From an uncultured Cohaesibacter sp. (GTDB taxonomy: Bacteria; Pseudomonadota; Alphaproteobacteria; Rhizobiales; Cohaesibacteraceae), in NCBI RefSeq assembly GCF_963677725.1, contig NZ_OY782507.1, forward strand, positions 1,860,001-1,924,000: DNA of 64,000 nt. The letters run 5' to 3'. Position 1 is the first letter of the stretch. Every line of letters begins with the position of its first letter. The notes beneath the pieces were generated by a model. The model was not told where the DNA came from. It made no database searches and saw nothing but the letters and a program-made list of their open reading frames with translations. The translations under genes and the position numbers were made by a program. Below, piece by piece: positions 24,214-25,826 of the stretch.

Positions 24214-24342
24214 CGCGCGCCAGGGGAATACCTACCTTCAAGACAAAGAACCAATATTCACATATCAATGAATATTGATGAATAACCAGCCCTGCCCTTG
24301 GTCAACCAGATCGGCGAGGGCACATATGGAAAGAGGCATGAT

Positions 24343-24660
<318 letters not shown>

Positions 24661-24687: not shown

Positions 24688-24722
24688 AAACCCGGTCAGC
24701 CCTGCTGATCGGGTTTCTTTTT
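24688..24722 (+). terminator. rho-independent terminator after trxA
   Basis: A 13-bp stem (24688–24700 with 24704–24716, one G·T pair) around a 3-nt loop, followed by TTTCTTTTT. It lies 28 bp after the trxA stop. Confidence 0.93.
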
Positions 24723-24861: not shown

Positions 24862-24902
24862 AACGAAAGCCCACCGGGGGAGGAGGTCCGGTGGGCTTCG
24901 TT
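24862..24902 (-). ncRNA. CcsR-like ('cuckoo') hairpin 3, also probable terminator
   Basis: On the minus strand a stem of about 15 bp (24888–24902 with 24862–24877, one bulged base) carries the loop ACCTCCTCCC. It is the last of three hairpins after the DUF1127 gene and is followed by ATTTTAAAG, so it may also end the transcript. A CCUCCUCCC loop next to a DUF1127 gene is the signature of the CcsR/cuckoo RNA family of Rhodobacterales and Rhizobiales. Confidence 0.75.
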
Positions 24903-24908
24903 GCAAGA

Positions 24909-24936
24909 TCCAAAACCGGGAGGAGGATGTTTTGGA
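24909..24936 (-). ncRNA. CcsR-like ('cuckoo') hairpin 2
   Basis: On the minus strand TCCAAAAC pairs with GTTTTGGA (8 bp) around a 12-nt loop that contains CCTCCTCCC (24918–24926). Its stem sequence is unrelated to those of hairpins 1 and 3, while the loop motif is identical, so the loop is what is conserved. Confidence 0.75.
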
Positions 24937-24940
24937 CCTA

Positions 24941-24970
24941 TCAGGCTTCTGGGAGGAGGAAAAAGCCTGA
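24941..24970 (-). ncRNA. CcsR-like ('cuckoo') hairpin 1
   Basis: On the minus strand TCAGGCTT pairs with AAGCCTGA (8 bp) around a 14-nt loop that contains CCTCCTCCC (24951–24959). It is the first motif-bearing hairpin after the DUF1127 stop codon. In Rhodobacter the equivalent RNAs are cut from the same transcript as the DUF1127 mRNA and respond to stress. Confidence 0.75.
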
Positions 24971-24988
24971 ATTTGCAGAAACTGTGGG

Positions 24989-25018
24989 CTTTCGCTTGAG
25001 ACTAGTCAGAAGCGAAAG
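24989..25018 (-). repeat. motif-free hairpin directly after DUF1127 gene
   Basis: CTTTCGCTT (24989–24997) and AAGCGAAAG (25010–25018) form a 9-bp stem with a 12-nt loop containing ACTAGT. It starts 7 bp after the DUF1127 stop and lacks the CCTCCTCCC motif and a T-run. It probably separates the mRNA from the hairpin RNAs, for example as a processing or partial termination site. Confidence 0.5.
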
Positions 25019-25024
25019 TCTTTA

Positions 25025-25177
25025 TTACACGCGGGCAGCTTCCCGAGCGATAGAGGTGATGTCTGCGCGGGAGATACCAAGATCGTTCAGATCGCGGTTG
25101 CTCAGGCGGCTCAGCTCATCAACAGTGTCACGGTAGTTGCGCCACTGACGGTAATTTTTCACAACATTATCAAGCAT
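25025..25177 (-). CDS. DUF1127 (YjiS-like) mini-protein
   Basis: A 50-aa, basic, tryptophan- and arginine-containing protein (MLDNVVKNYRQWRNYR...) with the DUF1127 core TVDELSRLSNRDLNDLGISRADI. The start at 25177 is preceded by AAAGGA at a sensible distance; an ATG at 25186 would touch the ribosome binding site. Short DUF1127 proteins of Rhodobacter (CcaF1) and Agrobacterium bind RNA and affect sRNA levels or phosphate metabolism. Here the gene leads the three CcsR-like hairpins on the same strand, matching the ccaF1–ccsR arrangement. Stress control is likely by analogy; no promoter was recognised. Confidence 0.88.
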   Translation of the reverse strand: MLDNVVKNYRQWRNYRDTVDELSRLSNRDLNDLGISRADITSIAREAARV

Positions 25178-25826
25178 GATAATCATCCTTTCACTGTGGC
25201 TTCGATATCGAGTTCTTTTTGTTTTTCTTTGCAACGAAGCGGGCCGTAACTCGATTTAAAGCGTCGCTCCGTTGTGTTGACTTGTATATAGCTCATAGCT
25301 CGGGGGATTACACCGTTCATTTTTGCATAGCTGTCTTGCGAAACATGCAAAACCGTTGATGCTCATTTCTTATCTATGCGTTAAACGCATACCTTGATCA
25401 GCAATAAAATTTTATGTAATTATTTCAATGACTTATCTAATTTTTATACGCAATTAACCTTACAACCATGGTTTAAGACAAGCGTTTGTATGTCGTGATT
25501 TTGGAGCGTTTTAAACGGGCATTCCAAGGCTTAATCGGAAATTTTGAAGTGTTTGTAATCAGTTACAGCCGTGCGACGTTCTGACCCATGCTAGAAAGGT
25601 TCAAAATTGCAACGTTTTCCGATCTCGGCGAGGTAATTGACGCTTACGTCAGAAAAAGCAAACGTTTGCGCGAAATGCTGTATTTCACGGCAATTGCCTA
25701 GTCAAATGGGTCAGATTTTGATCAAGTTGCCTTCGATCTTTCCTAAAAACGCATATCTCGGACTGAAGCCATCCGTTGGGGATAAGGCCTTCAACCTGTG
25801 AAAAACTCGATTTTTGCCATTGTTTT
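25178..25826. other. AT-rich intergenic region
   Basis: About 650 bp between DUF1127 (minus) and the folC stop. It is visibly richer in A and T than the flanks. It should contain the DUF1127/CcsR promoter in its left part, but no heat-shock or housekeeping promoter could be fixed by eye. A 37-codon frame at 25588–25701 has no ribosome binding site and is not called. Confidence 0.5.

What the first reader, a model, noticed from the sequence alone, without database searches (positions are those of the whole stretch)
24862..25177. Three CCUCCUCCC-loop hairpins behind a DUF1127 gene: a CcsR-like ('cuckoo') RNA locus
On the minus strand a DUF1127 mini-protein is followed by three hairpins with unrelated stems but the identical loop motif CCTCCTCCC, and a fourth hairpin without it. 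The last motif hairpin doubles as a terminator. In Rhodobacter the ccaF1–ccsR1-4 locus has this order and its RNAs are stress-induced. The loop is anti-Shine-Dalgarno-like, so it could pair with many ribosome binding sites.
Basis: partly seen in the sequence, partly recalled or inferred. Interest (0 to 1): 0.8.

Follow-up and report, generated by a model that had tools for sequence, protein, structure and literature searches.

The report
DUF1127–cuckoo small-RNA locus, probably LysR-controlled
A small protein gene is followed by a known type of regulatory small RNA whose three hairpin loops can probably block ribosome binding sites; what seems new is a conserved switch site in front of it, shared with many related bacteria, suggesting that one redox-linked regulator turns on much of this RNA family.

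Summary
On the minus strand a 50-aa DUF1127 gene (25177-25025) is followed by a motif-less hairpin (25018-24989) and three hairpins whose loops each carry an unpaired CCUCCUCCC; the last is a terminator. The RNA is a member of Rfam ar14 (87.1 bits, cut-off 58.8), the family of Sinorhizobium NfeR1; CcsR1 scores 23.6 (cut-off 65.3). DUF1127 plus cuckoo hairpins is already known as a 'CIN1 locus', so this is a new member of a known kind.

Three things go further. (1) A VtlR/LsrB-like LysR box lies at 25350-25324, upstream of a CTATAT -10. A published 15-bp VtlR motif (3 mismatches or fewer) matches upstream of 21 of 22 Rhodobacterales and 47 of 86 Rhizobiales-type cuckoo loci, against at most 2 and 6 for 300 shuffled motifs. 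(2) One strong LsrB-like match exists in each of 20 Rhodobacterales genomes searched, although LsrB was called unique to Rhizobiales. (3) The window genome has a second ar14 copy that lacks the DUF1127 gene kept by 16 of 18 loci at that site in the genus, linking CIN1 and stand-alone NfeR1-like forms. Binding, expression and processing are untested.

The parts
25324..25350 (-). LysR-type (LsrB/VtlR-like) box TTGCAT-N6-CAAGACAGCTATGCA; core 15-mer at 25338-25324
   Evidence: Core is 12 of 15 identical to the VtlR motif quoted in PMC12595884; core form CARGNCAGNNATGCA in 14 of 14 genus orthologues, the TTGCAT half in 13 of 14 (read from the alignment); contains TGCA-N6-GCAA, one letter from the NfeR1 LsrB site TGCA-N6-GCAT; composite pattern once in the own genome
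25286..25291 (-). -10 element CTATAT; no clear -35
   Evidence: CTATATACA identical in 14 of 14 genus orthologues; same -10 as reported for NfeR1 (CTTAGAC-N17-CTATAT). Transcription start inferred near 25280
25025..25177 (-). DUF1127 mini-protein, 50 aa (53 aa from an upstream in-frame ATG)
   Evidence: PF06568, 7.4e-16, 58 bits
24989..25018 (-). motif-less hairpin (8-bp core stem CTTTCGCT/AGCGAAAG), directly after the DUF1127 stop
   Evidence: Stem in 14 of 14 folC-trxA loci and 5 of 5 third-site loci, variable loop; a stricter loop length gave 12 of 14 and 5 of 5
24941..24971 (-). cuckoo hairpin 1, loop CCUCCUCCC
   Evidence: fold, ar14 match, changes on both sides in 5 of 8 pairs
24907..24938 (-). 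cuckoo hairpin 2, loop CCUCCUCCC
   Evidence: fold, ar14 match, changes on both sides in 3 of 10 pairs
24864..24900 (-). cuckoo hairpin 3 and intrinsic terminator, loop CCUCCUCCC, followed by a T-rich tail
   Evidence: fold, ar14 match to the model end, changes on both sides in 5 of 13 pairs; terminator role inferred from structure and tail
24862..24975 (-). ar14 sRNA (RF02344), whole model 1-123
   Evidence: 87.1 bits, E 2.3e-14, gathering 58.8

Best explanation
This is a CIN1 operon: one transcript carrying a DUF1127 protein and, in its 3' UTR, an ar14/cuckoo small RNA. SHOWN from sequence: the gene order, the ar14 membership, three covarying hairpins with exposed anti-Shine-Dalgarno loops, a terminator-like end, and a conserved LysR-type box about 44-70 nt upstream of the inferred start. 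INFERRED: the box is bound by the LsrB/VtlR-like regulator that this genome encodes beside trxB (C1 about 3.961-3.962 Mb), which would switch the operon on in response to redox or nutrient state. RNase E would cut in the gap between the motif-less hairpin and hairpin 1; the motif-less hairpin would then cap the 3' end of the DUF1127 mRNA and the downstream piece would be the sRNA. The sRNA would occlude G-rich ribosome binding sites of metabolic and transport mRNAs through any of its three loops, as shown for NfeR1. A second, stand-alone ar14 gene after uvrA would act in parallel.
For: RNA class. DUF1127. NfeR1 precedent for loop action and LsrB activation: PMC10746234 passages. CIN1 and RNase E/CcaF1 precedent: PMC10253847 passages. 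Box: a literature motif, not derived from these data, matches at 3 mismatches or fewer upstream of 21 of 22 Rhodobacterales and 47 of 86 other (Rhizobiales-type) loci; 300 letter-shuffled motifs reach at most 2 and 6. Density at 2 mismatches or fewer is 1.315/kb upstream against 0.0129/kb elsewhere in the same 113 loci. Composite genus pattern: 22 matches in 15 of 20 genus/family genomes, 0 for the reversed control; by coordinates against all 22 lie upstream of an ar14 hit. Composite Rhodobacterales pattern: 17 matches in 17 of 24 genomes, 0 control, 17 of 17 with cuckoo motifs within 1200 nt downstream. Regulator: the own LsrB-like protein matches PDB 9HH1 at 416.6 bits, which is A. tumefaciens LsrB, and lies next to trxB, as lsrB does in Rhizobiales.
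Against: No expression, binding or processing data. 39 of 86 Rhizobiales-type loci lack the 15-mer at 3 mismatches or fewer. A further set of 20 loci gave only 3 of 20: 3 of the 4 over the ar14 cut-off and 0 of the 16 under it. The window genome's own second ar14 copy matches the literature motif only at 5 mismatches. In the own genome the 15-mer alone is not specific (128 places at 3 mismatches or fewer, control 55). The composite patterns were read off the same loci, so their specificity is partly circular. The motif-less hairpin may have another role. DUF1127 may act on proteins rather than RNA (PMC12501420, passages).
Confidence: 0.72

Rival explanations
1. A CcsR-type locus in the strict sense: RpoH-driven, heat and oxidative stress induced, with separate RNAs released as in Rhodobacter.
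For: Same gene order as ccaF1-CcsR1-4; weak CcsR1 match of 23.6 bits.
Against: CcsR1 score far below its cut-off of 65.3; three hairpins forming one full-length ar14 match; no TTG at the expected -35. CcsR1 reached its cut-off in 0 of 385 class genomes, so that model is narrow and its failure says little.
Confidence: 0.12
2. The TGCA-rich box serves a regulator other than LsrB/VtlR, such as NtrC or another LysR protein.
For: NtrC also uses TGC/GCA half-sites (TGC-N11-GCA) and represses NfeR1.
Against: No TGC-N11-GCA in 25420-25271; the core matches the VtlR motif at 12 of 15; the first 60 residues (helix-turn-helix) of the LsrB-like proteins are 78-87% identical to the own one across 25 genomes while the rest is 35-58%.
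Confidence: 0.15
3. The hairpins are only a terminator array or mRNA 3'-end stabiliser for DUF1127, with no trans activity.
For: They lie in a 3' UTR and the last one looks like a terminator.
Against: Stems covary while the loop motif is kept. At the uvrA site the DUF1127 gene is absent in the window species and in its closest relative of the set while the RNA is kept, so the RNA does not need the protein gene. NfeR1, of the same family, acts in trans.
Confidence: 0.08

Closest known systems
ar14 / NfeR1 (Smr14C2) of Sinorhizobium, RF02344
   Same: Three hairpins with CCUCCUCCC loops, same covariance model, CTATAT -10, LysR box upstream
   Different: NfeR1 is described with its own promoter directly in front; here the RNA lies behind DUF1127 with an extra motif-less hairpin between
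ccaF1-CcsR1-4 of Rhodobacter sphaeroides (CcsR1 RF02791)
   Same: DUF1127 gene cotranscribed with cuckoo-type RNAs in its 3' region, terminator at the end
   Different: Four RNAs and an RpoHI/RpoHII promoter there; 71-aa protein against 50 aa; CcsR1 model not met here
CIN1 locus (cuckoo family, Reinkensmeier and Giegerich 2015; known here only through PMC10253847)
   Same: Short DUF1127 plus CcsR-like RNAs, often found in alphaproteobacteria
   Different: Original paper not held, so whether its authors noted the LysR box or the extra hairpin is unknown
VtlR/LsrB regulon of Brucella and Agrobacterium
   Same: VtlR activates small DUF1127-type genes and AbcR sRNAs through a 15-bp box
   Different: In the passages read those genes are treated as proteins or a putative sRNA, with no mention of a cuckoo RNA behind them; in Brucella rhizosphaerae one boxed DUF1127 gene does have four cuckoo motifs behind it (L120)

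Membership tests
ar14 (RF02344) | Covariance model score at or above gathering | tested here: met
   87.1 against 58.8 bits, full length
ar14 (RF02344) | Three hairpins, each with CCUCCUCCC in an unpaired loop | tested here: met
ar14 (RF02344) | Conserved LTTR-type promoter motif upstream (as in NfeR1) | tested here: met
   TGCA-N6-GCAA, one letter from TGCA-N6-GCAT; 12 of 15 identity to the VtlR motif; spans about -70 to -44 of the inferred start, NfeR1 site -72 to -57
CIN1 (cuckoo with DUF1127) | Short DUF1127 gene directly upstream on the same strand | tested here: met
   52 nt from the end of its frame to the ar14 start
CcsR1 (RF02791) | Covariance model score at or above gathering | tested here: not met
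   23.6 against 65.3 bits
CcsR1-4 / ccaF1 | RpoHI/RpoHII promoter | tested here: inconclusive
   No TTG 17 nt upstream of CTATAT in the sequence; sigma-factor use cannot be decided from this
CcsR1-4 / ccaF1 | RNase E processing with a part for the DUF1127 protein | not testable with these tools
   needs RNA mapping
LsrB/VtlR regulon | Direct binding and activation by LsrB/VtlR | not testable with these tools
   box present and LsrB-like regulator encoded; binding not measured

The most novel reading that the evidence does not exclude
One LysR regulator, LsrB/VtlR, is the ancestral switch of the cuckoo RNA family in both Rhizobiales and Rhodobacterales, including the CcsR-type operons so far assigned to RpoH sigma factors. 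The DUF1127 'small protein' genes known as VtlR targets would be, at least in part, precursors of cuckoo sRNAs. Stand-alone NfeR1-like genes can arise by loss of the DUF1127 gene from such an operon, as the species of the window's own genus suggest.
Probability: 0.55. Interest if true: 0.68.

Novelty: new member of a known kind. Interest (0 to 1): 0.5.

Why it matters
If the box is functional, three literatures describe one circuit: NfeR1/LsrB in Sinorhizobium, VtlR/DUF1127 in Brucella and Agrobacterium, and CcaF1/CcsR in Rhodobacter. That would give the Rhodobacter system a transcription factor, and a reason to look for sRNAs behind DUF1127 genes that have been studied as proteins. The absence of DUF1127 at one site in the window species offers a natural test of whether the protein is needed for the RNA.

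Tried and rejected
Rejected or dead ends. RF01837 (togavirus element, 26.8 bits, cut-off 40) at 24688-24716 and RF01066 6C (32.9, cut-off 47) are below cut-off; the first overlaps an inverted repeat 3' of trxA (sequence) and is taken as chance. NCBIfam gave no family for the DUF1127 protein and, for the two LysR proteins, none of the 25 families shown (of 46 and 43) reached its cut-off. CcsR1 over the class: 19 of 385 genomes at E 0.001 or better, 0 over cut-off; one of 14 control genomes (Thermus composti) also rang below cut-off. Target search: GGGAGGAGG-N1-9-ATG once in the own genome, a solute-binding-protein gene, but 2 for the reversed control. GGAGGAGG-N2-9-ATG 17 times against 3 for the control; 9 of the 17 had frames long enough to scan, and 8 of these 9 have Pfam hits, among them three transport proteins, a glutathione-dependent formaldehyde-activating enzyme and a gamma-glutamyltranspeptidase. 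I count this as a list of strong Shine-Dalgarno genes, not as evidence of targeting. The own-genome scan for the 15-mer at 3 mismatches or fewer gave 128 places against 55 for the control, and its listing was truncated. The two 1-mismatch places lie inside an ORF (L212) and inside a long open stretch (L213), so single 15-mer hits are not enough. The AbcR-like sRNA beside the lsrB-like gene scores 33.4 (cut-off 40) and has a box-like 15-mer at 4 mismatches in front of it: suggestive only. The organism could not be named; Rhizobiales-type affiliation is inferred from the trxB-lsrB pair and from 60-63% LsrB identity to five Rhizobiales against 45-51% to 20 Rhodobacterales.

Dropped rows and judgement calls. 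Of these, 7 from other phyla were set aside as chance, leaving 113; 5 of the 113 (L047, L061, L112, L116, L151) have under 150 nt upstream and were dropped, leaving 108. In one search a script slip scanned the whole of L047; without it the Rhizobiales stand-alone count is 32 of 64, not the printed 33 of 65. Orders were assigned by hand from record titles. L049 and L099 have titles that do not give the order and are counted with Rhodobacterales (without them 19 of 20 match); L049 was kept apart and L099 counted with Rhodobacterales. L056 and L147 (order not given either) are counted with the Rhizobiales-type group and kept apart. For the LsrB search I gave 20 of the 23 Rhodobacterales loci (L099 among them) and 5 of the other 90. 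Of the 14 folC-trxA loci one (L177) shows folC only; of the 18 uvrA-site loci L175 shows only the trmFO side and L183, at a contig end, was placed by likeness to L175. Weak ar14 hits (L180, L191, L195, L198, L203) and the family-level loci L205-L208 were left out of the counts; L206 is in the alignment.

Full report
WHAT IS THERE. The minus strand carries, in order, a 50-aa DUF1127 gene (25177-25025; PF06568, 58 bits), a motif-less hairpin (25018-24989), and three hairpins whose loops each show CCUCCUCCC (24971-24941, 24938-24907, 24900-24864; coordinates). The motif occurs three times in the window, all here. The RNA folds far better than shuffles (z -6.85) and the motifs are almost fully unpaired in the predicted ensemble. 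Neighbours are folC upstream on the same strand and trxA convergent downstream.

WHAT IT IS. Rfam places the RNA in ar14, full length, 87.1 bits against a cut-off of 58.8. CcsR1 reaches 23.6 against 65.3. ar14 is the family of Sinorhizobium NfeR1, whose three redundant loops silence mRNAs by pairing at the translation start region (PMC10746234, passages). Loci that combine a short DUF1127 gene with CcsR-like RNAs are often found in alphaproteobacteria and are called CIN1 (PMC10253847, passages).

DISTRIBUTION. All 18 genomes of the window's genus in the relatives search, own included, have ar14 matches, 1 to 4 each; over all 61 relatives it was 34, 23 of them over the cut-off. Across the class the model is rare: 9 of 190 genomes, only the own one over the cut-off, with filters that lose weak matches. 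A DUF1127 gene lies within 500 nt upstream on the same strand in 21 of 23 Rhodobacterales loci and 26 of 90 others. Motif number in one array runs from 3, which the scan demanded, to 12.

THREE SITES IN ONE GENUS. Loci fetched from genus genomes fall into three sites: folC-trxA (14 loci, the window's type; DUF1127 in 14 of 14), a third site (5 loci; DUF1127 in 5 of 5), and uvrA-trmFO (18 loci, one placed by similarity only; DUF1127 in 16 of 18). The two without DUF1127 are those of the window species (L210) and of G197 (L182), the closest of the set by the scores of neighbouring genes. There the RNA stands alone. In 9 of the other 16 the protein reads ..SISR in place of DLGISR (counted). So the RNA is kept where the protein changes or is gone, and an NfeR1-like stand-alone gene can plausibly arise from a CIN1 operon; the direction of change is inferred, no tree was made. 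The motif-less hairpin is confined to the first two sites: its 8-bp stem is identical in 19 of 19, with variable loops, and absent in 18 of 18 uvrA-site loci. I infer a 3'-end cap for the processed DUF1127 mRNA; that is a guess from position.

THE PROMOTER. Alignment of the 14 folC-trxA loci shows one strongly conserved block upstream, TTGCAT-N6-CAAGACAGCTATGCA in the window, then about 30 nt, then CTATATACA. The core form is in 14 of 14, the TTGCAT half in 13 of 14 (L199 differs). The core matches the reported VtlR motif CAATGCAGCCATGCA (quoted in PMC12595884) at 12 of 15. LsrB, the Sinorhizobium orthologue, activates NfeR1 through TGCA-N6-GCAT at -72 to -57; the window has TGCA-N6-GCAA. VtlR directly activates DUF1127-type small genes and AbcR sRNAs in Brucella and Agrobacterium.

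IS THE BOX GENERAL? The literature 15-mer was scanned in up to 320 nt upstream of each unit. With 3 mismatches or fewer it matched 21 of 22 Rhodobacterales loci and 47 of 86 others; 300 letter-shuffled motifs gave means of 0.11 and 0.67 and maxima of 2 and 6. Split by type and counting clusters, it was 19 of 19 (Rhodobacterales with DUF1127), 1 of 2 (Rhodobacterales alone), 15 of 24 (Rhizobiales with DUF1127), 32 of 64 (Rhizobiales alone, after removing L047, which was scanned wrongly), 3 of 3 (order not given) and 0 of 7 (other phyla); shuffled sequences gave 0 to 3.3%. Inside the same 113 loci the density at 2 mismatches or fewer is 102 times higher upstream than elsewhere. Against this: of 20 further loci only 3 match, 3 of the 4 over the ar14 cut-off and 0 of the 16 under it; 39 of 86 Rhizobiales-type loci do not match; the own stand-alone copy does so only at 5 mismatches. 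Reversed controls gave 0 in both. These patterns are partly circular.

THE REGULATOR. The window genome encodes an LsrB-like LysR protein directly downstream of trxB; its best-matching solved chain by sequence is 9HH1 (416.6 bits), which is A. tumefaciens LsrB. With this protein as query, 25 of 25 genomes holding cuckoo loci, 20 of them Rhodobacterales, have exactly one match at 1e-40 or better. Identity is 60-63% in the five Rhizobiales and 45-51% in Rhodobacterales. The first 60 residues (helix-turn-helix) are 78-87% identical while the rest is 35-58%. trxB is adjacent in 5 of 5 Rhizobiales and in 0 of 20 Rhodobacterales within the flanks held, up to 1.5 kb. PMC11975290 describes LsrB as unique to Rhizobiales (passages); the title of Sheehan et al. 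2015, seen in a reference list, calls the B. abortus regulator highly conserved among alphaproteobacteria. My result sides with the latter, with the caveat that orthology in Rhodobacterales rests on best match and single copy, not on a tree, and that only genomes with cuckoo loci were searched.

HOW IT PROBABLY WORKS. LsrB binds the box and recruits polymerase to a weak sigma-70-like promoter; the transcript of about 415 nt is translated for DUF1127; RNase E releases the ar14 RNA; its loops block G-rich ribosome binding sites. Only the sequence anatomy is shown here. DUF1127 may take part in processing, as CcaF1 does, or act on proteins, as in Agrobacterium (PMC12501420, passages).

NOVELTY. 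The locus itself is a new member of a known kind. The box at Rhodobacterales CIN1 operons, the LsrB-like regulator there, and the CIN1-to-stand-alone transition inside one genus I did not find in the held library: no paper holds CcsR or CcaF1 together with LsrB or VtlR except PMC12501420, where LsrB appears once, in the reference list, and none holds CcsR, LysR, Rhodobacter and promoter together. Other searches: (listings). The founding cuckoo and VtlR papers were not read: the cuckoo paper is not held, the VtlR paper was not looked up.

Noticed in passing
G000:C1:176822-176934 (L014, L210): Second ar14 copy of the same genome, stand-alone between uvrA and a lipoprotein-like ORF/trmFO pair, without the DUF1127 gene found at this site in most genus members
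   Followed up: yes
L232 1650-1784: Weak AbcR-like (ar15) sRNA just downstream of the lsrB-like gene, 33.4 bits below the cut-off of 40, with a box-like 15-mer at 4 mismatches in front
   Followed up: partly
L120 (Brucella rhizosphaerae): A DUF1127 gene with a VtlR-like box (2 mismatches) is followed by four cuckoo motifs, so VtlR-type DUF1127 genes may be sRNA precursors
   Followed up: partly
L138: Loktanella MAG with 12 CCTCCTCCC motifs in one array behind a DUF1127 gene
   Followed up: no
L140, L156, L066, L094, L108: Mesorhizobium loci with two DUF1127 genes in front of two triple-motif sets in tandem
   Followed up: no
window 24298-24660 and 24862-25177; L232: The cuckoo locus is convergent with trxA, while its presumed regulator lies beside trxB: a possible thioredoxin link
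   Followed up: no
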